From: Haliclona indistincta
Taxonomy: Eukaryota; Porifera; Demospongiae; Haplosclerida; Chalinidae
DNA: 64,000 nt
NCBI GenBank assembly: GCA_964017065.1
Contig: OZ024790.1
Coordinates: 12,584,703 to 12,648,702, forward strand
Reading direction: 5' to 3'
Shown: piece after piece, positions 26,965-62,398 of the stretch
Position numbering within the stretch: the stretch's first letter is position 1
Layout: each line of letters opens with the position of its first letter
Translations under genes and position numbers: made by a program
Notes under the pieces: generated by a model
The model's database searches: none
What the model was told of the DNA's origin: nothing
The model's input: only the letters and a program-made list of their open reading frames with translations

Positions 26965-28520
<1,556 letters not shown>

Positions 28521-35609: not shown

Positions 35610-38600
35610 CTAAAAGTTATATACACTCATCAAATTTTGTACAATGTTCAGTGCTGTTTCTGCAGCTTCAGCACATTCCTTTGCTTCCACTGCGGTGTAG
35701 ACATCCACAGGTGCTGTAGGAGACTTGTGAGCATCCGGATAGCGTGACTTGAGATAATGGTGCTCTAAACTAGACGCGATCTTGCAAAGCTTTTTAGTTT
35801 GATTCGAACATTTGTTGGAGTGAATTGCATCAGCAAGGCAGACTAGCTGATGATGCTGTAAGCAGGATTGATCCAGTCCAAATAACTGATAAGTACAGGC
35901 TTTGAGGGCTTTCTCAACTACTTGATGAGCAAGAAAGCACAGTGTGCTGGCAGTCTTGGTTTCAGTTAGCACGCTACGCTTCAAAACTCGCAGTGAACAG
36001 CAATCTGCTTCAGCTTGCCTCAACCAACGCTCAGCTTCAACATTGTCTGGTACTGGTTGAGTGTAACTTGGTCTTTCTCCTTTCGACCGTGATCTTCTTT
36101 TTCGTCTTCTGTACATATTCCTTGCAGTTTCATTCCATGCTCGATAGTTAGTCCATTGAGCACTAGTATGTTGTGATGGCATACTCTCGTTCTCTGGATC
36201 GTCCAAATTGAGCCCAGCCTCTAAATTTTCAATTTGCTTCATCAAATACTTGAATGCATCATCATAAATATCTGCCTCCTCTGGTTCGGCCTTGTCAGGA
36301 TGGTATTGAAGATAAAGCCGTTTCAAAGCCTTTTTTCGACTTTCTTTTGAAAGATTCTGAACAGTAGTTAGATCTTTATAAATACTCTTCTTCAGTTCCA
36401 GTAGCTTCTCATTCTTAGACAGCGGCTTCTTGGTTCTTGTACTTGTAGTAGAGGCAGACCTGCGACCAGTATAAAGCACCAATCCTCTGCTACTAGTAGC
36501 TTGAACTGGTTGCTCCTCATGTTCCTCTGCATCATCTATCAGCTTATAAAGATCAAGTGCCGAAACTTCCTTCCAATCTTCTTCCTTTTCACCAAATTTT
36601 ATTCTATAGAATGTGTGGAGGTACTCTGTAGCCTTACCTGATGGCAGCATGGGATGTAGTACAATAGCGTATATGAAGTGGTCTTCTTTGTATTCATAGC
36701 CGACCCATTCTTGAGCACGGAAAATATTGTTGATATCTTGATGACAGTCACAACGTTGGAGTGGTTGGCCTATTTTTGGAACATCAAACGGCGTGTCAAT
36801 GTCATCTAAATTGACTGAAAATTTTGAAGCAACATAATCCAAATCTCTGTCGGATTTGATTTGTAGTAATTCAGAAAGCCATGAACGAAATAAGAGGCAA
36901 TCTTCTGGACTGAAATTACCAACCTTTGCTGCCTCAATGCATAGGCAATGTGACAATTCACTCCAAAACTTATAACTGATATGTCTATCAACAGACTCCA
37001 TGGAATCCACGCTGAGACTGTAAGAGCCAAGTTGTGTTTGGCTAAGAAGGAAAGGAACAGGTTTACTCCCGAGACAAGATGGAGGCAAGTCAAGGGTGAG
37101 AAATATATCAGCACGAAGAGACGAAACAGTCTGAACTTTAACTTGTTCAATAATAGCAGCTATGTTAGTAGCAATTGCTTCTCTCAGCTCTGGTTCAAGT
37201 ACACCCTCATTACTTTGGGAAAGAACAAGTTTGATCTCCTTGTGAAATTGAATCATATTTGACAGTTGCTCGCACAGGTCTGATCGTGTTTTGCTTATTT
37301 TAACATCTTCTGTATTGGTTTCTGAAACATGAAAAGAAATGCGCTTTGGTCTTAGCCTTTCAGGAAGTGAAAGACATACATTCACTTCTGATTTCAAATC
37401 TAGTAGTCCACCTGAACATTCACTAGATGTATCAGGTGGTAATGCAAACATATTGTATGAAGAAGAACTAAAGTCTAGTGAGTCACCGTACCTTTGTGAA
37501 TCATCCACCAAGAGATGGGTGGATTTGACAAGGGTTAGCTCTGCGCAAGAAAGATATAGCTCGGTGAGTGCATCTCGTTGCTTAAAGTCCTGATCACAGA
37601 TTTTCATGATTTTCAGAATGGCTGTTCTGACTTTGAGTAACTGGTTTTGTTGAATCTTGCGACCCCCAATCTGATGATGGATACACTGCAGTATGTATTC
37701 AAGGTGCTTAATTCCTATTAGTTGAGTGACTCCAATTTTTTCCAAAGCTGGCGAAACAGAGTACATTCCGGATGGTAATTCATTGATGTAAGGCTCAAAA
37801 CATTTTTCAGATGCATCCATTGACCAGACAACTTGTAGCGAATTCACTAGAACATACGTGTGCTCCGGCTTGGTCACATCTGCAACCACTGGAATGCAAG
37901 CAACTTTTTCAAGGTCCTTTAGTTTGCGTTCATATGTCGCAAGAGCCCTGAAGTTATCAGACATAACCGATACTATACCAGTCTTACCAGTCTCCCATGC
38001 ATCCTTAAGGTAATAGGTACTGAACAGTTTAAAGTCTGCTAAAGCTGCCTTTGAGATTGACAAGACATTGTTATAAACATATTCACCACTTGGCTGTGTG
38101 ATCATGCCTAAATCTTTTTTAAGCTTCTTTTGTTCTTCAACTAAATATTTATTCCATTGTACCTTGACTACAGGCATGACAGTCCACACCAGCTTGTCAC
38201 ACGACGAGACAGCAGCTCCTCTCAGAGTGGTGAGCTGAAGAGTAGAGTTAACAGGAGCACAAGGAGTCTTGATCCAGCTGAGTTTGGGCAGTGGGTCTGG
38301 TCTGACAAAGCAAATTAGACCAATTTTATCGAGGTCATCAAAAGAGAAAGATGTTTGAAATGAGAACAAGTAGTCTAATAGCTCATCTGAAGCATTGTGC
38401 AGACTGAGGTGATTACCACTGGCAACAATCTTACAAAATTCGATGAACTGTTTAACTTTCAATATGGTCTGTAATCCAAGTTGTTTAAAGAACTTAAGCC
38501 AGTCATCGTCTCTATATGTTTTACTTGGAAACTTGAAATGGTCAGAAAATATCTGAAAGATTTTAACATTAGGATCAGAAAAATGAGAAACCGGAAGTAG

Positions 38601-41600
38601 TGCACCATTTTGAGAGTCTTTAAGGCAAGCAAGTGTTTTCAATTCAGCCAAAAGCATATCTTTATCCTTTACTGAGACATTGACAAGAACATGGTCTCTG
38701 ATGTATAAAAGATGTTTCTTTCTCTCAGAACTACTTAAATATCTAAAAGATTTAAAGATAAACCTTGTGTACAAATCTGTAGATGAAAGTTGATCAATTG
38801 ATAGGTCAAGACAATTCCATTCTCCATTGGCTTGTAAAAAGACGAGAGATTCAAGGTTAACCCATTTATCATAACCTGCTTTACAGCATTCAACTGGCCA
38901 AGCATAGACTTCTTTACCCCATAAAGATGTGTAAGTTCCATTGACCGTCTCAAAGAGAGGTAAAGACTTTATATATCTTGCACTGTCTGTATTATCTCTG
39001 AAGAATATGTGCCTGAAATAGTCAAATAATATGTGACTAACTGTGTCCATCTCCTTACCTGGTAAAATTAGCTCTCCGGTACGAGTATGGAAATGATACA
39101 ATGTCTCAAGCACTCTACCGTGCTCAGACATTTCAACACAGTGGCACTGGACTGCACGTAAGAGATCAGGTGATGAAGAAAAACGAGAAGCATCAAAAAT
39201 TGGTAATCTAAGCAACTTCAACAATTCGAAAGCAGCACATGTTTGAGGAGATGTAGTTTCTTCTGGACAAACGAGAGGTAGAATGGAGGACCTTGTAGAA
39301 AATAGGTAACATTCAGTAGTGGGTATTACTGCAAAGTGACTTGCAATCTCATCTTGATGAGTCATAAAGTTGATGTCACTATGAAAGCACTTCCAAAGGT
39401 CCTGAAGTTTTCTCCAGGAGATAAAGCATTCATTTGAATTATCTATCTCTTTTCCTTCGTACAATTCTATAGGCAAATTTTTCTTAAGAATACCTTGGAT
39501 TACTTCAAATTTTGATTCACTAGAAAAATAATCACATGACAATTTTAATTCCAGCATCCTAGGATGAAGAAACTTGCACAAGCTCTTGGGGAAGAGGTTG
39601 GTATATTCGCTACTGATGACTAAGTTGTTATGATCAAACACCCTTATGTGTTCATCAGCAGTCAAGAGAAGTGGATAACCAAATGGAGTCTGGTGATACT
39701 TCCTACTTTCTTCACCTATACGTATGCTTGTGATGAAGTTGGTGAACTTCACAATTTGTTCAGTTGTTTGAAAGACAGTATCAACTATTTGAGTTGGGGA
39801 TCGGCTTGGAAGAATCTTTCTGTGAAACATTGTGAAAAACTTAAAAGCGGCTGTAGAAGTACACACAGAATGTTCCAAATTCAATAAATGAAACTGCTTT
39901 CTGAGAAGGTCAGGTGCATCTGTGATGGTCATTCCGATCTTAATAAGTAGTTGCTTCACTGACTCATCTTTGAGCAATGAATGTGATCTGAAGTAAGCTT
40001 GATGGTATGAATCTTCCTCATTGCGAAGATTATACCACTGAAATTCAGTGCGGCCACTTTGATCACAATTAAAGCAAGCAAGTATTTGAACATTATTGGT
40101 CCACAACTTTTTAAATACATGCTGACCAAGCACTTTCCATTCACCTTCAGGATTACTAGAAAGAATTCTCTTAGCTTTAAAAATGGTGCGGCCTTCTATC
40201 TGAGGTACTCCAGTATGTGACTGAGATTCACAAATATCCCAGTAAGGGAACAGCTGATAGTAACTGATTAAATCAGCTTCTTTACTAGCAGTATGCTGGA
40301 CAAAGTGCTGACGAGCAATGACTAGAAAACGAACATAAGATGAAGAAATAGCCTTTATAAGCTTTTCATTCCATATCTTCCTTGCATCACCTTTTTCATT
40401 TGATAACCAAAGTGATCTACGACTGCTGCTCAAGACAAACTGCCCCTTAACATGGACAGGCAAATTCGTGTTAACTGGCAATGGTAGAAAGCAGAATGCT
40501 TTACCTTTGAATATTGTCGAGTTACCAGTTGGAAAAAGAGCTGCAAGCCCATGTTTAGGAGAAATACTGCCAGAATACGACCAGTCTTGTCCTGTTTCCT
40601 CAACATCTCCCACTCCTTGCTGCACTAGCCATTTGTCTTTACTAACTGATGAGGTATGACTAGTTTTGCTCGTGATAGATAAGCAGTATGTGACTAATTT
40701 TGGCATCTTATTTTGACGAAACTGATTTGCCATTTGAAAACATTCAGATCGTTTAGATTTATCACATTCGCTGACAAGGACCTTATAGCAATATTTGTGG
40801 CAACTTTGATCTCGTGAGACAACATAGAAACTAAAATGAGTGATATGGTTTAGAAAGATAAGAGATTCCTTGACTTGTGGCATCCAGCAGTGCAAGGTTT
40901 GTTCCATATTGCGTGCATCAATAATCTCCATGTGATCTGCGATTTCAGATTCAATCAATAATTCTGCAGTGTGTCTGAGCGGAAACCTAAAGAGAGATCC
41001 ACCTTGCAGCTCACTGGGCAGACCAGGCAATGGATCCCTCAGGTATGCACTCTTAAGGTCCGAAAAATTTCCCCAGAAGGCTTCATCAAGGTTATCAAAT
41101 CGTCGGCCAGGTAAACTAGGTGTGGCTCCTGGAGCATAGCGACAGTGAGGATCAAAAATACAGAGAGTTTTACCACCAGTGATAAAGCTGGGACAATCTG
41201 TTATATGGTATACCACATTAAAACCAATACCAAACTGACCAATGGACTCAAAGTCATCTCGTTTGGATCCTAGACCAAGCCGTTGGATTCCCTTTAAGTC
41301 ACTCTCTGTAAAATCTGCATCATTCCACACTAGTAGTGCTGGTCCCTGTAAATCTGTCCAACGATCTGATAATACTTTCTTATGGCCATGAGTACGTTTG
41401 TCTAGTATAACACACATCTTGGTAGCCTTAGCATCATCAGCATTCTGTATTAGCTCCTTGAGTACAGTAGCGTTCTCTTTATCAAAAGGATAATCTCTGA
41501 GAATATTTTTAATACGACAAGTCAGTGCCTCTTGCTGTCCAAAAGGGTCTCCTTGAAATGAATCCTGACTAGACTGATAGTTTTGAAGAAATCTACTGCT

Positions 41601-43397
41601 GACAGTTTTAACACCAATCTTGATAGCAGCACTTCTCGTCAATCTATCGGAAACGAACACATTGTCATCTGTAGTACACCACGATTCCTTCACAGAGAGA
41701 TCACTAGCTCGGTGTAGTCTATAAGAATCATCTGGTAAATAAACATCATCTGTGTCTATCATTTCCGGAAAAGTAAAGACTGAGTCGTTCAGCATGCTAA
41801 TGATCTCATTCACCTGTCTATGGCTTTTTGCTGACAAAACATGGTCAGGATTTTCTCCGTGCATATTTTTTAATGCACTAAAAAGATCATCAGCTTCAAA
41901 TTCATCTTTGACTCCTAGAGCATCTAAGAGGCTTGTTTTGTCTTGAATGATTTGAGGAAGTGAGAAGAGGTAAGGGCCATTGAATCGATAACTTCTTGAC
42001 ACTTGTGATGGTTTGACAAACTGTTCTCCAGTAAATATGAACGGTAAATCATAAAAGGACTTTATCGTAACAGATACCTGATTGTGAGACGTAATACTAC
42101 ACACATAATTCAGAAAACTGTAAGTAGCCTTGCAAATCTTCTCTACCCAGGCTTGTTGGTTAGCAAGGTTAGCTTTTGTGACAACAGTTCTCAAGTGTTT
42201 AAGCACAGCTGGTACAAGAAACAGTTCTGAAGAAGATAACACATTAGCTAAATCAACAGGTAAGACACCATTGATAAAGATAGCTTCAGAACCCATTATT
42301 AAAGCACGATCTGATTGCTCAATGTCATTGTGAAGAGCTAATAGTACTGTACGAGAAGAAGCCAAGTGCTGTTCATATGAACTTCCCTTCCACGGAAGCC
42401 ATCTGGGATAGTTAGATGGTCGTGCACCATGAACAGGCAGCCAGGAGTATCTAGTTGTCAAAACAGGAAGAGAATTTATCAGAGATGAATCTCCATCTCG
42501 TGTAATATTACAAGCAAACTTCACAACTGCAATGGCTCTTTCATTACTAATGCTGTCACATTGAACTGGCTCTTGAAATGGTGCCCTTCCTATTTCTTCA
42601 ATAATACTTACAAGACATTGAGCATTAACTGACTTTTGTCCTTTTAGTCCACAACGTCTTAGTGGTGTAAGACACGTATCAAAAGGGCGGATGGGAAACA
42701 CATCTTGACACCTGAAGAGACTCACAAGGTCAAAGCAACCTGGGTCATACAACTCTGCTGGACATTTCAATTCACCCTTCAAATTTTTGAGAAAATGTAA
42801 CTCTTTTAACAATCTAATAAAGAGTGTTCTTTCTTCATGTGAATAGGACTCGGTGAGATTTTTGAATTGTTTCAGAATGCTCAACATTAGAGCTTCTACT
42901 TTAGTACTGGGATACGTTCCATAGCTAATCATGGGAATAAGAACTTGACAGAGGAACCCAATCTTGTTCATGAATGTCACTTTGCCTCCTAATACATTTA
43001 ACAAGTGTGTCTGGTTATTTGCCTTGGAAATCACAAGAGGAGCTTGTGGAAGTAATTCATGGTCAAATGCGAAGTGATCTCTCTCTACTATTGCTAGACC
43101 AGTTATCAGATTTGAATTCATCACTGTTTCAATGGAGCACAACTGGCACTGGAGAGTGTGAAAAATTGCCAACTTTTGAAGAGTAGTGCATGCATTGTGA
43201 ATACTAGCTATGAGCCTGTGGTTATCATCAAAAAATGCTTGTAAAGCTGATGCTTCTTCAAAAGCAAGACAAATACTCTCGAGTGGAACTGGGCCGACAC
43301 AATCAATAGCATTCAACACACCAGGGCCGTTCAGCTGATGAAGGTAGTTCATGAGCTCTTGAGAGTATTTCAAGTAACTGTATGTAAAGAAATTCAC
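35610..43397 (-). CDS. Sacsin-like copy 1, main open segment: SIRPT 2, J domain, HEPN
   Basis: A 2,595-codon open frame. Approximate order: end of SIRPT 1 (1-600); SIRPT 2 beginning FGQQEALTCRIKNILRDYPF (about 640) with ATPase N-box NADDAKAT, GQFGIGF and a HVKGQFVLSSSRRSLW element; further linker to about 2,280; J domain (about 2,340-2,410) with the invariant HPD in YHPDKAEPE; and HEPN (about 2,480-2,590) starting RWLRQAEADC and including AHQVVEKALKACTYQLFG. The HEPN contains SRYPDAHKSP, i.e. an R-x4-H motif. The stop lies 142 bp from the convergent CFAP57 stop. Confidence 0.9.
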   Translation of the reverse strand: MNFFTYSYLKYSQELMNYLHQLNGPGVLNAIDCVGPVPLESICLAFEEASALQAFFDDNHRLIASIHNACTTLQKLAIFHTLQCQLCSIETVMNSNLITGLAIVERDHFAFDHELLPQAPLVISKANNQTHLLNVLGGKVTFMNKIGFLCQVLIPMISYGTYPSTKVEALMLSILKQFKNLTESYSHEERTLFIRLLKELHFLKNLKGELKCPAELYDPGCFDLVSLFRCQDVFPIRPFDTCLTPLRRCGLKGQKSVNAQCLVSIIEEIGRAPFQEPVQCDSISNERAIAVVKFACNITRDGDSSLINSLPVLTTRYSWLPVHGARPSNYPRWLPWKGSSYEQHLASSRTVLLALHNDIEQSDRALIMGSEAIFINGVLPVDLANVLSSSELFLVPAVLKHLRTVVTKANLANQQAWVEKICKATYSFLNYVCSITSHNQVSVTIKSFYDLPFIFTGEQFVKPSQVSRSYRFNGPYLFSLPQIIQDKTSLLDALGVKDEFEADDLFSALKNMHGENPDHVLSAKSHRQVNEIISMLNDSVFTFPEMIDTDDVYLPDDSYRLHRASDLSVKESWCTTDDNVFVSDRLTRSAAIKIGVKTVSSRFLQNYQSSQDSFQGDPFGQQEALTCRIKNILRDYPFDKENATVLKELIQNADDAKATKMCVILDKRTHGHKKVLSDRWTDLQGPALLVWNDADFTESDLKGIQRLGLGSKRDDFESIGQFGIGFNVVYHITDCPSFITGGKTLCIFDPHCRYAPGATPSLPGRRFDNLDEAFWGNFSDLKSAYLRDPLPGLPSELQGGSLFRFPLRHTAELLIESEIADHMEIIDARNMEQTLHCWMPQVKESLIFLNHITHFSFYVVSRDQSCHKYCYKVLVSECDKSKRSECFQMANQFRQNKMPKLVTYCLSITSKTSHTSSVSKDKWLVQQGVGDVEETGQDWSYSGSISPKHGLAALFPTGNSTIFKGKAFCFLPLPVNTNLPVHVKGQFVLSSSRRSLWLSNEKGDARKIWNEKLIKAISSSYVRFLVIARQHFVQHTASKEADLISYYQLFPYWDICESQSHTGVPQIEGRTIFKAKRILSSNPEGEWKVLGQHVFKKLWTNNVQILACFNCDQSGRTEFQWYNLRNEEDSYHQAYFRSHSLLKDESVKQLLIKIGMTITDAPDLLRKQFHLLNLEHSVCTSTAAFKFFTMFHRKILPSRSPTQIVDTVFQTTEQIVKFTNFITSIRIGEESRKYHQTPFGYPLLLTADEHIRVFDHNNLVISSEYTNLFPKSLCKFLHPRMLELKLSCDYFSSESKFEVIQGILKKNLPIELYEGKEIDNSNECFISWRKLQDLWKCFHSDINFMTHQDEIASHFAVIPTTECYLFSTRSSILPLVCPEETTSPQTCAAFELLKLLRLPIFDASRFSSSPDLLRAVQCHCVEMSEHGRVLETLYHFHTRTGELILPGKEMDTVSHILFDYFRHIFFRDNTDSARYIKSLPLFETVNGTYTSLWGKEVYAWPVECCKAGYDKWVNLESLVFLQANGEWNCLDLSIDQLSSTDLYTRFIFKSFRYLSSSERKKHLLYIRDHVLVNVSVKDKDMLLAELKTLACLKDSQNGALLPVSHFSDPNVKIFQIFSDHFKFPSKTYRDDDWLKFFKQLGLQTILKVKQFIEFCKIVASGNHLSLHNASDELLDYLFSFQTSFSFDDLDKIGLICFVRPDPLPKLSWIKTPCAPVNSTLQLTTLRGAAVSSCDKLVWTVMPVVKVQWNKYLVEEQKKLKKDLGMITQPSGEYVYNNVLSISKAALADFKLFSTYYLKDAWETGKTGIVSVMSDNFRALATYERKLKDLEKVACIPVVADVTKPEHTYVLVNSLQVVWSMDASEKCFEPYINELPSGMYSVSPALEKIGVTQLIGIKHLEYILQCIHHQIGGRKIQQNQLLKVRTAILKIMKICDQDFKQRDALTELYLSCAELTLVKSTHLLVDDSQRYGDSLDFSSSSYNMFALPPDTSSECSGGLLDLKSEVNVCLSLPERLRPKRISFHVSETNTEDVKISKTRSDLCEQLSNMIQFHKEIKLVLSQSNEGVLEPELREAIATNIAAIIEQVKVQTVSSLRADIFLTLDLPPSCLGSKPVPFLLSQTQLGSYSLSVDSMESVDRHISYKFWSELSHCLCIEAAKVGNFSPEDCLLFRSWLSELLQIKSDRDLDYVASKFSVNLDDIDTPFDVPKIGQPLQRCDCHQDINNIFRAQEWVGYEYKEDHFIYAIVLHPMLPSGKATEYLHTFYRIKFGEKEEDWKEVSALDLYKLIDDAEEHEEQPVQATSSRGLVLYTGRRSASTTSTRTKKPLSKNEKLLELKKSIYKDLTTVQNLSKESRKKALKRLYLQYHPDKAEPEEADIYDDAFKYLMKQIENLEAGLNLDDPENESMPSQHTSAQWTNYRAWNETARNMYRRRKRRSRSKGERPSYTQPVPDNVEAERWLRQAEADCCSLRVLKRSVLTETKTASTLCFLAHQVVEKALKACTYQLFGLDQSCLQHHQLVCLADAIHSNKCSNQTKKLCKIASSLEHHYLKSRYPDAHKSPTAPVDVYTAVEAKECAEAAETALNIVQNLMSVYNF

Positions 43398-45161
43398 TTG
43401 CTGGCTTCACGCCATACTTGGTCAGTGCTGCACCAAGGGAAGGAGTGACATCACAGCTGTTTAATGGAACGTACACTACACCAGCTGACTTGCTCAATCT
43501 GGCTACCTTCTCATGCTCTGGAGTACCAACAGGTACAATGGAAAGATTTTCAAAATACCATAGATCGCAAGGCTGAACCCATGACCAGAAAGTTTCAAGC
43601 CATTGTGAAGAATATTTCCTCGATGAAAAATCTCTAAGGAGACGAGCAACATCTTCTACCCTTAGAGACCGAAGCTGTGTACATCTGTGAGTACACATTC
43701 TCTCAAACTGATCATGAAGGAAGTTTGGAGGGTCGACAAGCAAGCCCCAAGAATGAGGCAAAAGTGTGCTGGGAACTTGCTTACTGCACAAATAATTTCG
43801 ATTGCGTTTGCTTCGAGAAAGCGTAGAAAATGTGTCAAACTCACCATTGACCAGTGGAAGGAGCTCTAGTCCAATCATATCACAACATTCATTGTCTTTG
43901 AGACAATATCTGAGTAATTCAAGCTTCTCGCTATTTGTTAAACTTTGATAAGCTCTTTTATTATCTTTCAGTGTTTGCCTGACCAATGGAGGATTTATTG
44001 TTTTGACTGACTCTAAATGGTTCGACAGGGCACTCCATACCACTTGACTAACACTAGTCACCTTTACTTTGCATTGGAGCAAAATTGTTTTCACTACAGT
44101 GGAAATATCTTCATCACGAGGTATGAATACTGCATCCTGTACTCTAATCCAACAGCCATCATTTATTGTAGAGTACACAACCTTGTGTTGAAACAACTTG
44201 AGAAAAAATGGCTGAAGGAATCCACTCCATTCTACACTATCCTTGATTTCATCTGCATCCGGCCAAGCCATGTATATCTCATCAGGAGTAGCTACTTTCA
44301 ATTCTATTATCTTGACAATCAAATAAACGTAGCAAGATGGCAGGCAATACTCTACAAGCAGTTTGTTCCATTTTGCTTGTGGGTCATTCTGCCTTTCTTC
44401 TGCCGGCCATTTGAGAGACCTTCGATTGTCGCTAAGGGCAAATGTTCCATTAACATGAACTGGAATTGGAGCAGTGGTTTCACAAGGCATTGGAAGAAAG
44501 CAAAACAGGCGCCCAGCTCTATTGGAGAAATTGGATGCTACCTCAATAGCTGTCCCGACCCAAGGCAAGACACGCTGTCTGGCTGCCTCATTTATGACTT
44601 GTGGCTCAGTGCTACCAACTTGCTGAGCTACAAGCCAGTGATGGTTGGATGTATCAGTAGTTGCATCATTGACTACAACACTAAAGCTACTAACGTCTGA
44701 AACTATTTCCAAGACATTGTACAGAGACTCACTATTAAAGATTGCACGAACCTTGTCTATAAAAGTTATTTGGGCCTCAGAGGTTAGAATCACTTCAAAA
44801 ACTTGATCTTCTTGTAAACCATCATGCAAAAATGAGAGGCTAACTTTTTTTACAGAGTTAAGAAAGAGAAGGAGGTACTTAGCTTCATATCTGAGTGATG
44901 CTATCAAGGGTAGGAGTGCTTGTGGATTATAGCATGTATTAGATAACTTAGATCCACATTTTCGAAGAGGCAGACGGAACAAAGTTGCCGGAAAATTTTT
45001 TAACCCACTCCTAAATCCACAAATTCCATTTAAGGAATCAAGTACATCAGCATTTCGATGAAGATTAGTCAAGCTGAATCTTTTTCCAGAATTTCCTTTC
45101 CATATACGTTCTTGTGGGTCAAGATACACACAGTATCGACCACTAATTATCATCGGTAAAT
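43303..45161 (-). CDS. Sacsin-like copy 1, upstream open segment of exon 3
   Basis: This segment encodes the rest of SIRPT repeat 1 (DLPMIISGRYCVYLDPQERIW, corresponding to DLPsvlSG..l.mfDPH in sacsins, and HVNGTFALSDNRRSLKWP). It ends 95 bases after the next frame opens (overlap 43,303-43,397), which locates the frameshift. The acceptor ctttcag at 45,162 joins it to exon 2 to complete an Asp codon. Confidence 0.8.
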
Positions 45162-46114
45162 CTGAAAGACAAATTATGACATAATATACTTGTACAATAA
45201 CATGAAGGGGATCAAAATGCACTAGTGTAGAGTAATTGATTAATAATTGACCATCGTATATAATCGGTCGCTATATTTTTCAGACCAATCAAATGGCAGC
45301 CTATAAACAAGAGAGCGACGACACTATACGTACTAATACATCGCCCGTACTTTGTCAGATGTGAGTTCGGAGGTGCAGACTAACACTGTCGTGTACAAAT
45401 TGCTAACACGCACTGCTATGACTAGGTAGCTTCAGAGACTAACACCAATGGCAGCAGCATGTGAGTTGCACTTAAACCATATACTAACGTATTATGAAAA
45501 CAATAGTCTTCATTTGTGCTACTTATGTAATTCTAAAGACTGTAGCAACTGTGGTAGAAGCATTTTAAAGAATAATCATTAATTTTTTCACAGCAGTTGT
45601 CGAGCAGTATTTATGGCTTGTGATGAAGAAATTTCGAAGGGATTTCATTTTCGAAGATAAGACCGACCTTGATAATTAATACTGAGTTAACTACACAGCC
45701 TACACTGCTATTCAGTTACACCTTAAATTTTCAGTGAAATGCGGCTTGAGCTGGCGAGCTGCCTGATCTTTCATGAGCTACGTATCAGCACAGATTCTGA
45801 TCGTCAACTACTGTCACTGTTGTAGTGTAGCCAGTAACGGCATTTTTGTCGCGTGTTTCTCCTCAGTAGCTTCCAAGAAGTCTTTTAAACATGATACAAA
45901 TGACTTGTCGAAGATACTGCATAAATACTTACAGTAGACCCTCGCTAATCCGAACACCTTGGTACCCGCTACTGTTCTGATTGAATCGCATTATGTACCG
46001 AGAAGCCCCGACCGGAAGTCACGTGCGCGAGCCGCCTTCGGCGGCTTATATTATCTACGCGCGCGCACGTATAGAAGCACTATAAAGGCTTGTTTGGTGG
46101 ATTGAACAGCCAAC

Positions 46115-46197
46115 AGGTTTCGGTGGCTCAGCGGTTTAGTGCGTGGTTTGTAGTGCATACGCTCCGGGTTCGATTACCAATCATGGTGTCTTTTTTT
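46115..46197 (+). ncRNA. tRNA-like Pol III transcription unit
   Basis: A-box tggctcagcgg (46,124-46,134) and B-box ggttcgattacc (46,167-46,178) have the normal tRNA spacing, and a run of seven T ends the unit. I could not fold a complete acceptor stem or confirm an anticodon, so this is a tRNA pseudogene or the head of a SINE rather than a working tRNA. Confidence 0.6.
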
Positions 46198-46248
46198 ATT
46201 ATTTTTTTCTCTACAAAAACTAAGTTTTTTTGTCCATTTACAACGCTC

Positions 46249-46402
46249 TAGACGATCTTTAGCAAGGGCAGAAGGCCCGCTTTAGGACGACCTTCTCGAC
46301 GATCCTTAGGCTTACCAAGGGCCGAAGGCCCGGGTTAGGACACCCTCCAGAAGATCCTTAGGCTTACCAAGGGCCGAAGGCCCGGGTTAGGACACCCTCC
46401 CG
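46249..46402. repeat. 52-bp tandem repeat, about 2.7 copies
   Basis: The phrase gatccttaggcttaccaagg recurs with a 52-bp period together with gccgaaggcccgggttagga; the first copy is more diverged. It sits directly downstream of the tRNA-like unit. Confidence 0.8.
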
Positions 46403-46425
46403 ACTTTGCACAGTTAGGAGAAGGT

Positions 46426-46460
46426 TTTTAGGGTTTAGGGTTTAGGGTTTGGGTTTAGGA
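46426..46460. repeat. TTTAGGG-type telomere-like repeats
   Basis: About four to five units of tttaggg, the last ones degenerate (tttggg, tttagga). Animal telomeres use TTAGGG, so the plant-type heptamer is unusual. It is internal to a transposable element. Confidence 0.7.
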
Positions 46461-48279: not shown

Positions 48280-48515
48280 AGCAGATCATAGCAACAGTGC
48301 TATGGAAGCGCAGGCTATAGTGGCAGCTATCCAGCAGCAGCAGATCATAGCAACAGTGCCATGGAAGCACAGGCTAGTGGCAGCTATCCAGCAGCAGCAG
48401 ATCATAGCAACAGTGCTATGGAAGCACAGGCTAGTGACAGCTATCCAGCAGCAGCAGATCATATAGCAACAGTGCTATGGAAGTGCAGGCTAGTAGCAGC
48501 TATCCAGCAACTGTA
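48280..48515. repeat. 57-bp tandem repeat in sacsin copy 1 intron 1
   Basis: Four copies of a unit containing gcagatcatagcaacagtgc and tatggaagcacaggctagtg (starts at about 48,281, 48,340, 48,397 and 48,454; spacing 59, 57, 57). Decayed copies precede it back to about 48,180. The unit is absent from the equivalent intron of copy 2. Confidence 0.85.
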
Positions 48516-50215: not shown

Positions 50216-50531
50216 CTTACCTCACAACCCTATATCAGAAGACTCGTCCGTGAAATTTTGTTGATCAAACAAAATTCAAAGGGTACCTGAGAAAATGGTT
50301 CGTTGATCTGCTCACATGCACCTTGTGCAATATCTTCTAAGTCCATGCAAGATAACCTAGTAAAGTAATACAACTGATATACATTCTCTAACTTATGTAC
50401 ACAGGCACTTTTCCACGACTTTGCAGTTACAGTGTCACAGGTAAACTATATAGTGTCTGTGCCTCACACAAACAATCCCACATGTACTTCTGCAGTGATT
50501 GTGAGAAACTCTCTGTAGCCTTTGCCTTCAT

Positions 50532-52832: not shown

Positions 52833-53144
52833 CAGGCGCGTATGCACGATAGGTTTCCAGGGTTTCCGGAAACCCCCCTTGTAGCCCCACTAATTAGTAT
52901 TCATAGTAAATTAGCTAGCTAAACCACGTGCCCTTATCTGAAGCAGCTGGTTTATATGAGCTATTAGGCTAAGCAGTCAGCCAGAACAGCTAGCCAAGTG
53001 CGCAGCAAGTATAATTTTATACGCGTACATATCATACGATCACGTGTAATCTATGAAGCTCATGAATATTAATTAGCAAAATTTTTCGCGCGCTCCGCGC
53101 GCGATTTCGAAACCTCCCTTTTATATTTCCTGGCTACGCCACTG
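52833..53144. mobile_element. 312-bp hAT-type MITE inserted in sacsin copy 2
   Basis: It starts caggcgcgtatg and ends ctacgccactg, with the internal catgaatattaattagcaaaattttt block shared with the 311-bp MITE at 1,042-1,352. Comparison with copy 1 (37,746-37,770) shows a clean insertion in which aagct is present on both sides; the expected 8-bp hAT duplication may have decayed to these 5 bp. It introduces stops in all relevant frames. Confidence 0.9.
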
Positions 53145-56100
53145 AAGCTGGCGAAACAGAGTACATTCCAGATGGTAATTCATTGATGTAAGGCTCAATA
53201 CATTTTTCAGATGCTTCCATTGACCAGACAACTTGTAGCGAATTCACTAGAACATACGTGTGCTCCGGCTTGGTCACATCTGCAACCACTGGAATGCAAG
53301 CAACTTTCTCAAGGTCCTTTAGTTTGCGTTCATATGTCGCAAGAGCCCTGAAGTTAGCAGACATAACTGATACTATATCAGCCTTACCAGTTTCCCAGGC
53401 ATCCTTGAGGTCATAGGTACTGAACAGTTTAAAGTCTGCTAAAGCTGCCTTTGAGATTGATAAGACATTGTTATAAACATCTTCACCACTTGGGTGTGTG
53501 ATCATACCTAAATCTCTTTTAAGCTTCTTAATTTGTTCTTCAACTAAATATTTATTCCACGGTACCTTGACCACAGGCATGACAGTCCACACCAGCTTGT
53601 CACACGATGAGACAGCAGCTCCTCTCAGAGTGGTGAGCTGAAGAGTAGAGTTAACAGGAGCAAAAGGAGTCTTGATCCAGCTGAGTTTGGGCAGTGGGTC
53701 TGGTCTGACAAAGCAAATTAGACCAATTTTATTGAGGTCATCAAAAGAGAAAGATGATTGAAATGAGAACAAGTAGTCTAATAGCTCATCTGAAGCATTG
53801 TGCAGACTGTGGTGGTTACCAATGGCAACAATCTTACAAAATTCGATGAACTGTTCAACTTTCAACATGGTCTGTAATCCAAGTTGTTTAAAGAACTTAA
53901 GCCAGTTATCATCTCTATATGTTTTACTTGGAAACCTGAAATGGTCTGAAAATATCAGAAAGATTTTAACATTAGGATCAGAAAAATGAGAAACCGGAAG
54001 TAGTGTACCATTTTGAGAGTCCTTAAGGCAAGCAAGTGTTTTCAATTCAGCCAAAAGCATATCTTTATGCTTTAATGAGACATTGACAAGAACATGGTCT
54101 CTGATGTATAGAAGATGTTTCTTTCTCTCAGAACTACTTAAATATCTAAAAGATTTAAAAATAAATCTTGTGTACAAATCTGTAGATGTAAGTTGATCAA
54201 TTGATAGGTCAAGACAATTCCATTCTCCATTGGCTTGTAAAAAAACGAGAGATTCAAGGTTAACCCATTTATCATAACCTGCTTTACAGCATTCATCTGG
54301 CCAAGCATAGACTTCTTTACCCCATAAAGATGTGTAAGTTCCATTGACCGTCTCAAAGAGAGGTAAAGACTTTACATATCTTGCACTGTCCGTATTATCT
54401 CTGAAGAATATGTGCCTGAAATAGTCAAATAATATGTGACCAACTGTGTCCATCTCCTTACCTGGTAAAGTTAGTGCTCCGGTACGAGTATGGAAATGAT
54501 ACAATGTCTCAAGCACTCTACTGTGCTCAGACATTTCAACACAGTGGCGCTGGACTGTGTATAAGATATCAGGTGATGAAGAAAAACGAGAAGCATCAAA
54601 AATTGGTAACCTAAGCAACTCCAACAATTCGAAAGCACATGTTTCAGGAGATGTAGTTCCTTCTGGGCACACAAGAGGTAGAATGGAGGACCGTGTAGAA
54701 AATAGGTAACATCCCGTGGTGGGTATTACTGCAAAGTGACGCGTAATCGCATCTTGAACCACAAAGTTGACTTCACTATGAATCCACTTCCAAAGTTGCT
54801 GAAGTTTTCTCCAGGAGATAAAGCATTCATTTGAATTATCTAAATCTTTTTCTTTGTACAATTGTACTGGAAAATTTTTCTGAAGAATACCTTTGAATAC
54901 ATCAAATTTTGATTCGTTCGAAAAATAATCACGTGACAAATTTAATTCCAGCATCCTAGGATGAAGAAACTTGCACAAGCTCTTGGGAAAGAGGTCAGTG
55001 TATTCGCTAATGATGACTAAGTTGTTATGATCAAACACCCGTATGTGTTCATCAGCAGTCAAGAGAAGTGGATAACCAAATGGAGTCTGGGGATACTTCG
55101 ATAGATTTATACGTCTGGTTGTGATGTAGTTGGTGAAGCTGACCATATGTTCAGTTGTTTGAAAGACCGTATCAACTATGTGAGTTGGGGATCGGCTTCG
55201 AAGAATCTTTCTGTGGAACATCGTGAAGAACCTAAAAGCTTCTATAGGACCACATACAGCAGGTTTCAAATTCAATAACTGAAAATGCTTGCTGAGAATT
55301 TCAGGTGCGTCTGTGATGGTCATTCCGATCTTAATAAGTAGTTGCTTCAATGATTCATCTTTGAGCAATGAAGGTGATCTGAAGTAAGCTTGATGGTATG
55401 AATCTTCCTCATTGTGAATATTATACCATTGAAATTCAGTGCGGCCACTTTGATCACGACTAAAAATAGCCAGAATTTGACAATTACTGGTCCACAACTT
55501 TTTAAATACATGCTGACCAAGCAATTTCCATTCACCTTCAGGATTGCTAGAAAGAACTCTCTTAGCTTTTAAAATGGTGCGCTCTTCTATCTGAGGTACT
55601 CTGATATGTGACTGAGATTCACAAATATCCCAGTAAGGGAACAGCTGATAGTAACTGCTTAAATCAGCTTCTTTTCTTGCACCATGCTTGACAAAGTGCT
55701 GACGAGCATTGACTAGAAAACGAACATAAGATGAAGAAATAGCATTTATAACTTTTTCGTTCCATAACTTCCTTGCATCATCTTTTTCATTTGATAACCA
55801 AAGCGATCTGCGACTGCTGCTCAAGACAAACTGGCCGTTAACATGGACAGGCAAATTGGTGTTAACTGGCAATGGTAGAAAGCAGAATGCTTTTCCCTTG
55901 AATATTGTCGAGTTACCAGTTGGAAAAAGAGCTGCAAGCCCATGTTTAGGGGAAATGCTGCCAGAATACGACCAGTCTTGACCTGTGTGCTCAACATCTC
56001 CCACTCCTTGCTGCACTAGCCATTTGTCTTTACTAACTGATGAGGTATGATAATTTTTGCTCGTGATAGACAAGCAGTATGTGACTAATGCTGGCTCCTT

Positions 56101-59100
56101 ATTCTGACGAAACTGATTTGCCATTTGAAAAAATTCAGATCGTTTTGATTTATCACATTCGCTGACAAGGACCTTATAGCAATACTTGTGGCAAATTTGA
56201 TCTCGTGAGACAACATAGAAACTAAAATGAGTGATATGGTTTAGAAAGATAAGAGATTCCTTGACTTGTGGCATCCAGCAGTTCAAGATTTGTTCCATTT
56301 CCTGAGCATCCGCAGTATCTATGTTATCTGTGATTTCAGATTCAATCAATAATTCTGCAGTGTGTCTGAGCGGAAACCTAAAGAGAGAGCCACCTTGCAG
56401 CTCACTGGGCAGACCAGGCAATGGATCCCTCAGGTATGCACTCTTAAGGTCCGAAAAATTTTCCCAGAAGGCTTCATCAAGTTCATCATATCGTCGGCCA
56501 GGAAAACTAGGTGAGGCTCCTGGAGCATAGCGACAGTGAGGATCGAAAATACAGAGAGTTTTACCACCAGTGATAAAGCTGGGACAATCTGTTATATGGT
56601 AGACCACATTAAAACCAATACCAAACTGACCAATGGACTCAGAGTCATCTCGTTTGGATCCTAGACCAAGCCGTTGGATTCCTTTCAAGTCATTCTCTGT
56701 AAACTCTGTATCATTCCACACTAGTAGTGCTGGTCCCTGTAAATCTGTCCAACGATCAGATAATACTTTCTTACGACCGTGAGTACGTTTGTCTAGTATA
56801 ACACACATTTTGGTAGCTTTAGCATCATCAGCATTCTGGATCAGCTCCTTGAGTACAGTAGCATTCTCACTATCAAAAGGATAATCTCTGAGAATATTTT
56901 TAATACGACAAGTCAGCGCCTCTCGCTGTCCAAAAGGGTCTCCTTGAAATGAATCCTGACTTGACTGATAGTTTTGAAGAAATCTACTGCTGACAGTTTT
57001 AACACCAATCTTGATAGCAGCACTTCTCGTCAATCTCTCGGAAACAAACACATTCTCACCTGTGGTACACCACGATTCCTTCACAGACAGATCACTAGCT
57101 CGGTGTAGTCTATAAGAATCATCAGGTAGGTACACATCGTCTGTGTTGATCGTTTCAGGAAAGACCGAGTCGTTCAGCATGCTAATGATCTCATCCACAT
57201 GTCTGCGGCATTTTGATGACAAAACAAGACCAGGATTTTCATCGTGCATCCTTCCTAATGCACCAAAAAGATCATCAACTTCAAATTCATCCTTGACTCC
57301 TAGAGCATCTAAGAGACTTGTTTTGTCTTGAATGATTTGAGGCAGTGAGAAGAGGTAAGGACCATTGAATCGACTACTTCTTGACACTTGCGATGGTTTG
57401 ACAAACTGTTTCCCAGTAAAAATGAATGGCAAATCATAGAAGGACTTTATCATAACAGATACCTGATTTTGAGACATTATACTACACACAGAATTCAGAA
57501 AACTGTAAGTAGCCTTGCAAATCTTCTCTACCCAGGCTTGTTGGTTAGCAAGGTTAGCTTTTGTGACAACAGTACTCAAGTGTTCAAGTGCAGCTGGTAC
57601 AAGACACTCTTCTGAAGAAGATAACACTTTAGCTAGGTTATAAGGTAAGACTCCATTGATAAAGACAGCTTCAGAACCCATTATTAAAGTAACGTCTGAT
57701 AGCTCAATGTCTTTGCTAAGAGCTACTAATACTGTATGAGAAGATGCCAAGTGCTGTTTATATGAACTGCCCTTCCATGGAAGCCATCTGGGATAGTTAG
57801 ATGGTCTAGCACAGTGAACAGGCAACCAGGAGTATCTAGTTGCCAAAACAGGAAGAGAAATTAATAGAGACATATCTCCATCTTGTGTAATATTACAAGC
57901 AAACTTCAAAACCGCAATGGCTCTTTCACTAGCAATGCTGTCACATTGAACGGGCTCTTGAAATGGCGCCTTTCCTATTTCTTCAATAATACTTACAAGA
58001 CATTGGGCATTGACTGAATTTCGTCCTTTAAGTCCACAACGTTTCAGTGGTGTAAGACACGTATCAAAAGGGCGAATGGGAAACACATCTTGGTACCTAA
58101 AGAGACTCACAAGGTCGGAGCAACCTGGGTCATACAACTCTGTTGGACATTTCAATTCACCCTTCAAATTTTTGAGAAAACGTAACTCTTTTAACAATCT
58201 AATAAAGAGTGTTTTTTCTTCATGTGAATAGGACTCGGTGAGATATTTGAATTCTTTGAGAATGCTCAACATTAGAGCTTCTACTTTAGTACTTGGATAC
58301 GTTCCATAGCTAATCATGGGAAGAAGAACTTGACAGAGGAACCCAATCTTGTTCATGAACGTCATTTTGCCTCCAAATACATCTAACAAGTGTGTCAGGT
58401 TATTTGCCTTGGAAATCACTAGAGTAGCTTGTGGAAGTAATTCATGGTCAAATGCGAAGCGATCGCTCTCTACTATTGCTTGTCCTGTTACTAGATTTGA
58501 ATTCATCACTGTTTCAATGGAGCACAACTGACACTGGAGAGTGCTAAAAATTGCTAACTTTCGAAGAGTAGTGCATGCATTGCGATTACTATCTATGAGT
58601 CTGTGGTTGTCATCAAAAAATGCTTGTAAAGCTGATGCTTCTTCAACAGTGAGACAGATACTCTCGAGTGGAATAGAGCCAACAGATTCAATAGCATTTA
58701 ACACACCAGGGCCGTTCAGCTGATGAAGGTAGTTCATGAGCTCTGGAGAGTATTTCAAGTAACTGTAAACCCTTTCACTTGCTAGCTTCACACCATACAT
58801 GGTCAGTGCTGCAGCAAGGGAAGGAGTGACATCACCACAGCTGTTAGATGAAGCATACACAACACCAGCTGACTTGCTCAGTTTGGCTACCTCTTCCTGC
58901 TCTGGAGTACCAACTGGTACAATGGAAAGATTATCAAAGTGGCGAAGATCACAAGGCTGAACCCATGACCAGAAAGTTTTAAGCCATTGTGAAGAAAATT
59001 GCCTTGACGAAAATACCATTGAATATCTAAGGAGATGAGCAACATCTTCTACCCTTAGAGACCGAATCTGTGTACATCTGTGAGTGCAAATTCTCTCAAA

Positions 59101-60554
59101 CTGATCATGAAGGAAGTTTGGAGGGTCAACAAGCAAGCCCCAAGAATGAGGCAAAAGTGTGCTGGGAACTTGCTTACTGCACAAATAATGTCGATTGCGT
59201 TTGCTTCGAGAAAGCGTAGAAAATGTGTCAAACTCACCATTGACCAGTGGAAGGAGCTCTAGTCCAATCATATCACAGCATTCATTGTCTTTGAGACAAT
59301 ATCTGAGTAATTCAAGCTTTTTGCTATTTGTAAACCTTTGATAAGCTCTTTTATTACCTTTCAGTGTTTGCCTGACCAATGGAGGATTTATTGTTTTGAC
59401 TGACTCTAAATGGTTCGACAGGGCACTCCACACCACTTGACTAACACTAGTCACCTTCACTTTGCATTGGAGCAAAACAGTTATCACTACAGTGGAAATA
59501 TCTTCATCAAGAGGTACAAATACAGCATCCTGCACTCTGATCCAGCAGCCATCATTTATTGCAGAGTAGACAACCTTGTGTTGAAATAAGTTGATAAAAA
59601 ATGGCTGAAGGAATCCACTCCATTCTACGCTATCCTTGATGTCATCTGCATCCGGCCAAGTCATGTGTATCGCATCATGAGTAGCTACTTTTAATTCTAT
59701 TATCTTGACAATCAAATACACATAGCAAGATGGCAGGCAATGCTCTACAAGCAGTTTGTTCCATTTTGCTTGTGGGTCATTCTGCCTTTCTTCTGCCGGC
59801 CATTTGAGAGACCTTCGATTGTCGCTGAGGGCAAAGGTTCCATTAACATGGACTGGAATTGGAACAGTGGTTTCACAAGGCATAGGAAGAAAGCAAAATA
59901 GGCGTCCAGCTCTATTGGAGAAATTGGATGCTACCTCAATAGCTGTCCCAACCCAAGGCAAGACACGCTGTCTGGCTGCCTCATTCATGACTTGTGGCTC
60001 AGTGCTACCAACTTGCTGAGCTACAAGCCAGCGATGCTTGGACGTACCAGTAGTTGCATCATTGACTACAACACTAAAGCTACTAATGTCTGAAACTATT
60101 TCCAAGACATTGTATGGAGACTCACTACTAAAGATTGCACGAACCTTGTCTATAAAACTTCTTTGGGGCTCGGAGGTTAGAATCACTTCAAAAACTTGTT
60201 TCTCTCGGATACCATCATGCAAAAATGAGAGGCTAACTTTTTTTACAGAGTTAAGAAAGAGAAGGAGATACTTAGCTTCATCTCTGAGTGATGCTATCAA
60301 GGGTAGGAGTGCTTGTGGATTATAGCATGTACTAGATAACTCAGATTTACATATTCGAAGGGGCAGACGAAACAAAGTTGCTGGAAAATGTTTTAACCCG
60401 CTTCTAAAGTTGCAAATTCTACTCAAGGAATCAAGTACATCAGAATTTCGATGAAGAGTAGTCAAGTTGAATCTTTTTCCAGGATTTCCTTTCCATATAC
60501 GTTCTTGTGGGTCAAGATATGCACAGTATTGACCACTAACTATCATCGGTAAAT
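53134..60554 (-). CDS. Sacsin-like copy 2, upstream open segment: SIRPT 1 and 2
   Basis: A 2,470-codon open segment covering the rest of SIRPT 1 (DLPMIVSGQYCAYLDPQERI), the linker that is frameshifted in copy 1 but continuous here, and all of SIRPT 2 (FGQREALTCRIKNILRDYPF; ELIQNADDAKAT; GQFGIGFNVVYHIT). It runs into the MITE after ...GMYSVSPA, close to where copy 1 reads ALEKIGVTQLIG. Identity with copy 1 is visibly about 90% at protein level (estimated by eye). Confidence 0.85.
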
Positions 60555-62398
60555 CTGTAAGGCATAATAACATGAAAAGAGGTCAAAATGCACTATAATT
60601 ATAGCGTAGAGTAATTGATTAACAATTGACCATCGTATAAATTGAACACCATTTTTTCAAATGGCGCACACATCCAGCCTATAAAAAATAGTGTGGGTGT
60701 ACTATACGTACGAGACAGAATAGTACATTGCCCACTTTGTTGGATGTGCAGACTAACACGAAGTCGAGTACAAAGTGTTAACACGCACAGCTATAGAGGT
60801 ACATGGTGAATAGGTAGCTACAGAGACTAACAGCAGTGGCAGGAGATCGTCAGCTACCATCGCTGCTACATTGTAGCCAGTAACAGGATTTTTGTTGCGC
60901 GCTTCTCCTCAGTAGCTTCCCAGATGTCCATGATAACAACGACTTGTCAAAGAGCTTTCTGATACTACATGACTGCTTGCTGCCATTTTCGCATGCGAAA
61001 AACAAAATTTTAAACGTGTTCAATTTTTGAGAAGAATTTTTGAGAGCACCCTCAAAATTAATCGTTGAAAATTTAATATTCAAAACACTTTTTCATTCGA
61101 AATTTTCTGCATCTACAGTGGTTTGTGGGTAACCTTATGAAGCACTTGCGTAACTCCATATTACAGATGCTTGTGCTGCATAGAATTTATAATTATAATG
61201 CTCACGAAAATACAGAGATCAGAGCTGGTACAAGGCTCTGATGTAGCCCATAAAGTAACAATAATGAAGGCTTGGCATGAATTGAACAAAAGAGCTGTTT
61301 CATTTCAAAATCAACACATGTACACATGCATGTAGCACTAAACCAAGCCATTATAGGCTGCAGATTTAGCATTGTTGATATAGCATAGTTGATGTTGTTA
61401 ATATGGAAGAAAACTGCTCTATTGAGACCCAATCACACAATAAACATACAAGTGTACAGATGTATAGGAAACGTGTTTGATTCTGTCTATGAATGAAATC
61501 CCAAAGTGGTCACTAGCTTTTTTAGCAAGAGCCTGAGTGAGCCTTAGTATGAAGCCAATACAATCCCATGCACATGTCTCTGACTGTACTAGAATCTATT
61601 GTCTTACCTGTGATGTGATAGACTGAATTAAATCCGATGCCAAACCTTCCCACTTTGAACGGATTATCAGCTTTTCCACTTCGCTGCAGATTCTTGATAC
61701 CCTCCCAGTCATTCTCAGTGAAGATAGCATCATTGTATGCAAGAAGAGCTGGTCCATGATAGTGTTTGAGAAGATCCTGGGAGTGTGGCTCAACAAGGCA
61801 AGATGAGAGAGTGGAGAGATTACGATGGTCTAGAATGAACTTGACTTCTGTTGCTCCAGCATCGTCTGCATTCTGTATCATCTCCTGTACAGTAGTATTG
61901 GTACATGATAACATGCTTAGTAATAAATCTGTAGCTTGGAAAGTTTTCATACAGAAATGCATGTACTGCTAAACATAAAAAATGCTCAGGCACGTTTGCT
62001 CAAAACAGCGCAGTAGCACACAAAGAAAAATCTATGAGTCACATTGCAAGCCATTGTCGTGCTAAGCCTGTATACCTTTACCGAGTTTCAGAAGTGAGCA
62101 ATGGTCTCTGCAGCTCGATGGACAGAACGAACGAACAATGCAAGTGACAAACCAAGTACCGTAACCCTCGTGCATGCGCCGATGGTTAATGATTAGTGTG
62201 GACAGCAATCCCAGCATCAATGCACATCCCATCCCAGCATGGTTATTGGTTTGTGTATTCATGATAAATCCCTCATGAGCATGTTCAAAGCTATACGTAC
62301 ATCATGTAATATCCCATGTACGTACTATAATAATAATGTGTGCAGACTTTAATGATTGTCTCACGCTAAAACTCCTGTATTTATTGCAGTATCATAAT

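What the first reader, a model, noticed from the sequence alone, without database searches (positions are those of the whole stretch)
35610..61884. Tandem sacsin-like genes, each broken by a different single lesion
Two roughly 3,300-codon genes (two Hsp90-type ATPase/SIRPT repeats + J + HEPN) lie side by side. Copy 1 has a 4-nt net insertion, copy 2 a 312-bp MITE. In both, arithmetic on the exon lengths shows that removing the lesion restores an exact multiple of three, with no other stop over about 9.5 kb. Both are therefore very young lesions, assembly errors, or tolerated. If real, the individual may carry no intact local copy.
Basis: partly seen in the sequence, partly recalled or inferred. 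Interest (0 to 1): 0.8.

Follow-up and report, generated by a model that had tools for sequence, protein, structure and literature searches.

The report
Two freshly broken sponge sacsin genes
Two neighbouring copies of a giant chaperone-like gene, probably in a sponge, have each been broken by one small recent accident, but a third, unbroken copy lies about 50 kb away, so this looks like ordinary gene-family turnover caught unusually early.

Summary
Two tandem sacsin-like genes (minus strand) share one exon plan and about 91% DNA identity. Copy 1 carries a 4-bp tandem duplication (43,383-43,386). Copy 2 carries a 312-bp MITE-like element (52,833-53,144) with a 5-bp target-site duplication, net 317 bp, so it also shifts the frame. 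Of 18 main-exon indels separating copies 1, 2 and 3, only these two are not multiples of three; neither broken copy has another stop.

The suggestion that no intact local copy exists is wrong. A third copy (C8:12,685,648-12,699,118), outside the window, is open throughout (3,307 aa), beside a relative with an open 4,231-aa frame. The locus is a segmental duplication of a [short gene + long gene] cassette: in unit 3 both main exons are open; in units 1 and 2 the short gene is broken and the long gene truncated. Copies 1-3 are mosaics, as gene conversion would leave them.

dN/dS is about 0.43 between copies and not detectably raised on the broken branches, so both lesions look young. A neighbouring relic, 96% identical to the long gene, already has seven disabling changes. 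Most likely: very recent loss-of-function in a birth-and-death family. Whether fixed, segregating or expressed needs reads, other individuals or RNA.

The parts
35610..43406 (-). Copy 1, main-exon frame downstream of the frameshift: second SACS (HSP90-like) repeat, J-like region, HEPN
43303..45161 (-). Copy 1, main exon upstream of the frameshift (acceptor CAG|ATTTACC at 45161; premature stop at 43303-43305)
43383..43386 (-). Copy 1 lesion: 4-bp tandem duplication, absent from copies 2, 3 and 'far'; predicted product 744 aa (717 normal + 27 aberrant)
47683..47959 (-). Copy 1, second coding exon (277 bp, phase 1, first half of SACS repeat 1); splice sites match copies 2 and 3
   Evidence: Pfam
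49494..49592 (-). Copy 1, first coding exon with ATG (33 codons)
49859..50221 (-). Relic of the 3' end (HEPN) of a copy-4-type long sacsin gene between copies 1 and 2
   Evidence: Pfam HEPN 2.8e-9; DNA match to the 3' end of copy 4; sequences
50699..52831 (-). Copy 2, main-exon frame downstream of the insert: J-like region and HEPN
52828..53149 (.). Copy 2 lesion: 312-bp MITE-like element (52833-53144) flanked by 5-bp target-site duplication AAGCT (52828-52832, 53145-53149); net +317 bp
53134..60554 (-). Copy 2, main exon upstream of the insert: rest of SACS repeat 1 and SACS repeat 2; premature stop at 53134-53136; predicted product 2,598 aa
61608..61884 (-). Copy 2, second coding exon (277 bp); its first exon with ATG lies outside the window (equivalent 64633-64731)
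28821..50194 (.). Unit 1 of the segmental duplication; matches window-equivalent 90355-115015 (unit 3) in pieces

Best explanation
A chromosome of what is probably a sponge carries a segmental tandem duplication of a two-gene sacsin cassette (a short gene of about 3,300 codons and a long gene with an open main frame of 4,231 codons). In unit 3 both main frames are open. Units 1 and 2 keep only 3' pieces of the long gene, and their short genes were each inactivated very recently: copy 1 by a 4-bp tandem duplication that stops translation after residue 744, copy 2 by a MITE-like insertion that stops it after residue 2,598, before the J and HEPN regions. Shown: gene structure, the lesions, the intact third copy, the duplication, mosaic similarity between copies, purifying selection averaged over their history. 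Inferred: that the lesions are real in the animal, that the broken genes no longer make working sacsin, that the mosaic reflects gene conversion, and that redundancy with copy 3 made the loss tolerable.
For: Lesions unique to one copy each, with 16 of 18 main-exon indels in frame. Open third copy and long neighbour. Segmental duplication map. Splice sites and first exons conserved in all three copies. dN/dS 0.43, 0.43 and 0.44 in the three pairs among copies 1-3 (dS 0.108-0.149); private-change dN/dS 0.37 (copy 1), 0.46 (copy 2), 0.41 (copy 3), differences not significant (Fisher p 0.50 for 1 v 3, 0.56 for 2 v 3, 0.20 for 2 v 1). Zero nonsense changes bound the neutral time since loss at about 0.7% divergence. 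Local control: the relic at equivalent 64962-70670, 96.2% identical to copy 4, has 6 out-of-frame indels among 9 internal ones, and 1 stop codon; Fisher p 0.006 against 2 of 18. The copy 1 lesion lies in a stretch (43,200-43,710) where 48 of 57 informative sites group copy 1 with copy 3, against 429 of 969 over the main exon, and copy 3 lacks it; if that stretch is one exchange, the lesion is younger than it.
Against: The relaxed constraint expected of a dead gene was looked for and not found; this fits young lesions but also fits genes that still work. The copy 2 element differs from its family majority by 5 of 307 bases and 4 indels on an automatic count; most of these differences were in none of the 20 other copies aligned, and a 29-base pattern across one of its deletions matched nowhere else in the genome with up to 2 mismatches. 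If all arose after insertion, the flanking frames should have decayed too (P of no stop 0.0014 at 1.6% divergence, 0.016 at 1%); so either most were carried in by the source element or the exon stayed constrained after insertion. The relic used as control also shows dN/dS 0.31 against copy 4, so it too was constrained for most of its history. No reads, second individual or RNA were available.
Confidence: 0.78

Rival explanations
1. The lesions are real but segregating: the sequenced haplotype carries null alleles of copies 1 and 2 and other haplotypes carry whole genes. (A refinement of the best explanation rather than its opposite; the odds overlap.)
For: Lesions are too young to have left other damage. 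[quoted passage not shown] Two nulls side by side on one haplotype would fit a null polymorphism.
Against: No intact version of copy 1 or 2 is among the 120 proteins listed of 179 matches; the three close entries stand for one sequence each. They may all come from one specimen.
Confidence: 0.3
2. One or both lesions are sequencing or assembly artefacts.
For: Each main exon is otherwise open; no reads could be examined.
Against: The 4-bp change is a tandem duplication rather than a homopolymer error. The insert has both ends and a 5-bp target-site duplication, as 18 of 20 fetched family members do. The frames bordering the lesions are recorded on two contigs each, independence unknown.
Confidence: 0.1
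3. The copies still work in truncated or spliced form: copy 2 as a two-repeat sacsin without J and HEPN, or with the element removed as part of an intron.
For: Copy 2 keeps both SACS repeats upstream of the stop. 120 phase-compatible GT-AG pairs surround the insert in the stretch scanned. dN/dS of copy 2's downstream piece is not clearly raised (private 0.42, against 0.45 for copy 1 and 0.30 for copy 3).
Against: The eight best-scoring splice pairs listed are mediocre on a crude consensus score and would remove about 490-760 bp, that is 180-450 bp of coding sequence besides the 317-bp insert; stops created at the junction were not checked. dN/dS averages over mostly pre-lesion time. Copy 1 keeps only 717 normal residues against 3,307 in copy 3.
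Confidence: 0.12
4. The copy 1 frameshift is programmed (translational frameshifting).
For: Only that the downstream frame stays open.
Against: Copies 2, 3 and 'far' lack the extra bases and read on in one frame at this site.
Confidence: 0.01

Closest known systems
Sacsin (SACS; PDB 5v44-5v47 HSP90-like domain, 1iur J domain, 3o10 HEPN)
   Same: Repeated HSP90-like SACS domains, J-like region with HPD, C-terminal HEPN
   Different: About 3,300 codons with two SACS repeats, against 4,579 residues and three repeated regions in human sacsin (PMC3629688, abstract in search listing). No ubiquitin-like match in the frames scanned; the 33-codon first exon was not scanned and further 5' exons are not excluded.
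Multiple sacsin-like proteins of the sponge Amphimedon queenslandica (PMC3710099, passages read)
   Same: Several sacsin-like genes in one genome
   Different: Amphimedon members are reported fused to DEATH domains; no DEATH match appeared in the frames scanned, and the regions upstream of the first exon were not scanned.
[quoted passage not shown]
   Same: Unusual variation of a sacsin-like gene in an early-branching animal
   Different: There two divergent haplogroups persist; here the comparison is among tandem paralogues, two of them broken, in one genome.
Pseudogenes of tandem families, birth-and-death evolution (general knowledge, recalled)
   Same: Tandem duplication, likely gene conversion, independent inactivation with an intact paralogue left
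   Different: Only one lesion each in about 9.6 kb of otherwise open frame, so caught very early.

Membership tests
Sacsin family | Repeated HSP90-like SACS domains | tested here: met
   PF25794 in both copies, two stretches in copy 3; PDB sacsin 5v45 at 3e-35 with copy 3
Sacsin family | J domain before the C-terminus | tested here: met
   PDB 1iur, KIAA0730 protein (that this is the sacsin J domain is recalled), at 3.4e-7 with copy 3; HPD present in copies 1-3; Pfam shows only sub-threshold DUF4460 and no DnaJ match
Sacsin family | C-terminal HEPN domain | tested here: met
   PF05168 at 1.7e-15 (copy 1) and 7.7e-14 (copy 2), 6.4e-14 (copy 3); PDB sacsin HEPN 3o10 only at 0.0054
Sacsin family | N-terminal ubiquitin-like domain (vertebrate sacsin) | tested here: inconclusive
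   The ATG exon found has 33 codons before repeat 1 continues in the next exon; further 5' exons not excluded
Pseudogene | Disabling change absent from unbroken paralogues | tested here: met
Pseudogene | Relaxed constraint | tested here: not met
   dN/dS on broken branches 0.37 and 0.46 against 0.41 for copy 3, not significantly different. So the two genes are filed only as having recently lost the full reading frame, not as established pseudogenes.
Pseudogene | No functional product | not testable with these tools
   no RNA or protein data
MITE | Short, multicopy, conserved ends, target-site duplication | tested here: met
   40 matches in the genome including this one (40 scored of 87 candidates), 25 of them spanning at least positions 1-310 of 312; conserved ends in the 20 copies fetched; exact 5-bp target-site duplication in 18 of those 20 and in the window's copy
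MITE | Autonomous partner transposon | not tested
   not searched; superfamily not assigned

The most novel reading that the evidence does not exclude
Loss of the short sacsin gene is repeatedly favoured or balanced in this animal: units 1 and 2 carry independent young nulls maintained as alleles, with gene conversion from unit 3 able to erase or spread them, so the array acts as a reservoir of switchable copies.
Probability: 0.1. Interest if true: 0.55.

Novelty: new member of a known kind. Interest (0 to 1): 0.3.

Why it matters
Giant genes dominated by one exon give a sensitive clock for gene death: over about 9.6 kb, the first lesion can be seen before any second one. With a whole sister copy, a decayed relic and mosaic exchange at one locus, this cluster could be used to ask whether tandem sacsin copies are redundant, polymorphic or under selection for loss. 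It does not imply that the animal lacks sacsin.

Tried and rejected
Programmed frameshift for copy 1: rejected because copies 2, 3 and 'far' lack the shift. 'No intact local copy': rejected. Dating copy 2's element by raw identity (92% to the nearest copy): misleading, because gaps are counted; ungapped identity to the nearest copy is 98.3%. Counting all its majority differences as substitutions after insertion: withdrawn after looking at the alignment, where small indels seem to explain part of them (by eye). Species identification: COX1 from contig C46 is at best 90% identical to an unnamed protein; the closest named cluster is Demospongiae at 84%, followed by cnidarian clusters at 82% and less (120 rows listed, 7,999 candidates scored), so 'probably a sponge' is a modest inference., looking for papers by genome and mitochondrial size, found nothing. 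Of the papers in the listing, Geodia barretti has a 144-Mb assembly but in 4,535 scaffolds, with 49.3% GC and an 18.0-kb mitochondrial genome (PMC10542158, abstract and passages read), unlike this genome's 46 contigs and 24.9-kb contig C46. Literature on sacsin arrays (listings) gave the HEPN survey and the Acropora paper; no title or abstract start in those listings describes broken tandem sacsin genes, and the 15 rows listed of 316 do not hold the word sacsin. This says nothing about papers outside that library. A further split member on C5 (open frames 1587 and 2463 aa) has about 1 kb of extra sequence between parts that resemble a neighbour only at 64-66% and was not followed further. A C2 member with frames 1745 and 4623 aa was left open (break or intron).

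Full report
What is there. The window is C8:12,584,703-12,648,702 of a 144-Mb genome in 46 contigs. The mitochondrial COX1 on contig C46 is closest, among named entries listed, to a Demospongiae cluster (84%), with cnidarian clusters next at 82%, so the host is probably a sponge; the species was not identified. Two sacsin-like genes lie head to tail on the minus strand. Coordinates above 64,000 below are the window's numbering continued into fetched neighbouring DNA.

Gene structure. Copies 1, 2 and 3 share one plan: a first exon of 33 codons with ATG, a 277-bp exon ending in phase 1, and one main exon of about 9.5 kb, with conserved donor and acceptor sites. Copy 1 has its ATG at 49,592, exon two at 47,959-47,683 and the main exon from 45,161. 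Copy 2 has its ATG at 64,731 (outside the window), exon two at 61,884-61,608 and the main exon from 60,554. The gene models rest on sequence conservation; no RNA was seen. Pfam finds SACS (PF25794) and HEPN (PF05168) in the pieces of both copies. The intact copy 3 matches solved sacsin HSP90-like domains (3e-35), 1iur (3.4e-7; the sacsin J domain, recalled) and, weakly, sacsin HEPN (0.0054).

The lesions. Aligned with copies 2 and 3 and a distant open paralogue ('far', C8:10.85 Mb, 3,227-aa frame), copy 1 alone has four extra bases, a tandem duplication at 43,383-43,386. The predicted product is 744 aa, of which 717 are normal. Copy 2 alone has a 312-bp element at 52,833-53,144 with an exact 5-bp target-site duplication, net 317 bp; the predicted product is 2,598 aa against 3,307 for copy 3 and lacks the J and HEPN regions. 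The element belongs to a repeat family: 40 matches including itself (40 scored of 87 candidates), 25 of them near full length. Of 20 fetched copies, 18 have an exact 5-bp target-site duplication.

Is it more than chance? Over the main exon copies 1-3 differ by 18 indels; 16 are multiples of three and the two others are the lesions. Neither broken copy has another stop in its main exon. A local control is the relic at 64,962-70,670, a 5'-truncated relative of the long neighbour, copy 4, 96.2% identical to it: 6 of its 9 internal indels are out of frame (two end gaps were left out of that count) and it has one stop codon, two base differences from copy 4's codon. The contrast with 2 of 18 gives Fisher p = 0.006.

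Intact copies. Copy 3 (100,946-114,416; C8:12,685,648-12,699,118) has a single open main frame of 3,195 aa, and beside it copy 4 has one of 4,231 aa. Genome-wide, the SACS profile gives 63 matches on C2, C5, C8 and C9. Several further members have single long frames (4,271, 4,182, 4,162, 4,159, 4,313, 7,253 and 7,276 aa), and two others have split frames, one on C5 and one, break or intron, on C2. So the animal is not without whole sacsin-like genes.

How the locus arose. Self-comparison of 144 kb shows that 28,821-50,194 matches 90,355-115,015 in pieces, and 50,594-70,657 matches 100,813-120,358 in pieces. Each unit is a short gene with a long gene upstream of it on the same strand; unit 3 has both main frames open, unit 2 keeps only the 3' part of the long gene (the relic above), and unit 1 keeps only its HEPN end at 49,859-50,221. 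Copies 1-3 are mosaics. The longest run of informative sites grouping copy 1 with copy 3 is 39 (39,613-39,293) against a shuffle mean of 7.9 (p = 0.0002, 5,000 shuffles); the longest runs for the other two pairs also exceed chance (p = 0.003 for 1 with 2, 0.0004 for 2 with 3). The shuffle ignores variation in rate and constraint along the gene, so it supports gene conversion without proving it.

Age and selection. Pairwise dN/dS is 0.43 (copies 1-2), 0.43 (1-3) and 0.44 (2-3), with dS 0.133, 0.108 and 0.149. Changes private to each copy give 0.37, 0.46 and 0.41; none of the three pairwise differences is significant. So the relaxed constraint expected of a long-dead gene is not seen. With 4.3% of random substitutions being nonsense, zero stops bounds the neutral time since loss at about 0.7% divergence. 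The copy 1 lesion lies within a stretch, 43,200-43,710, where 48 of 57 informative sites group copy 1 with copy 3 (429 of 969 over the main exon), with such sites on both sides of it; copy 3 lacks it, so if that stretch is one exchange the lesion post-dates it. For copy 2 the element's own differences are ambiguous. An automatic count gives 5 substitutions of 307 and 4 indels against the family majority. By eye the alignment suggests fewer substitutions and about three to four small indels, and a 29-base pattern across one deletion was found only here, allowing two mismatches. If all were acquired in place, the flanking frame should show damage (P of no stop 0.016 at 1% divergence, 0.0014 at 1.6%), so most were probably carried in by the source element. 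This remains a tension.

Artefact? Not excluded. P0003 (the frame after the copy 1 lesion, from its first methionine, 2,580 aa) and P0004 (2,470 aa, 85% identical to copy 3, taken from its length to be the frame before the copy 2 insert; its sequence was not displayed) are each recorded on two contigs with a longest of 435,750 bp, and no intact version of either copy is among the 120 rows listed of 179 matches. Sources of the two are not shown and independence of the contigs is unknown.

Function. Sacsin is described as a chaperone, and its HEPN domain has been proposed to act on RNA under stress; multiple sacsin-like proteins occur in the sponge Amphimedon (PMC3710099, passages read). The working model is redundancy: after duplication, the short copies in units 1 and 2 were kept under purifying selection for most of their history and were lost very recently, with copy 3 remaining. 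That last step is inference.

Verdict.

Noticed in passing
window 49859-50221 (-): Orphan HEPN end of a copy-4-type long sacsin gene between copies 1 and 2, marking the truncated edge of duplication unit 1.
   Followed up: yes
window-equivalent 64962-70670 (C8:12,649,664-12,655,372), L009: 5'-truncated relative of the long gene copy 4, 96.2% identical, with 6 frameshifting indels and 1 stop codon, yet dN/dS 0.31 against copy 4.
   Followed up: partly
C-termini of copies 1-4: The HEPN Rx4-6H motif (motif from PMC3710099) reads R-x4-H (RYPDAH, RYPNRH) in broken copy 1 and in copy 4, while copies 2 and 3 have Q in place of R.
   Followed up: no
C5:6124100-6139516 and C2:13603511-13623088: Two more sacsin-like members whose main frame is split (1587+2463 aa, about 1 kb extra between homologous parts; 1745+4623 aa, break or intron unresolved).
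   Followed up: partly
C9:1740392-1764186 and C9:1774871-1798871: Two giant tandem sacsin-like genes with uninterrupted frames of 7,253 and 7,276 aa and six SACS matches each within the long frame, larger than human sacsin.
   Followed up: no
window 10734-13052 (-): Uninterrupted 772-aa hAT-like transposase frame (Dimer_Tnp_hAT).
   Followed up: no
window 26965-28446 (-) and 28359-29207 (+): A 493-aa RUVBL/TIP49 open frame whose end overlaps, on the opposite strand, a WD40 (MABP1/WDR62-like) open frame inside which the segmental duplication begins (28,821).
   Followed up: no
window 23340-24215 (+): Open frame with a 3-oxo-5-alpha-steroid 4-dehydrogenase domain.
   Followed up: no
window 14102-14413, 21306-21731, 25883-26217: Long palindromes of 312-426 bp (85-91% self-complementary), perhaps foldback elements.
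   Followed up: no
window 31839-32286; 46427-46465: A 17-bp unit repeated about 26 times, and a short TTTAGGG array inside the copy 1 intron.
   Followed up: no
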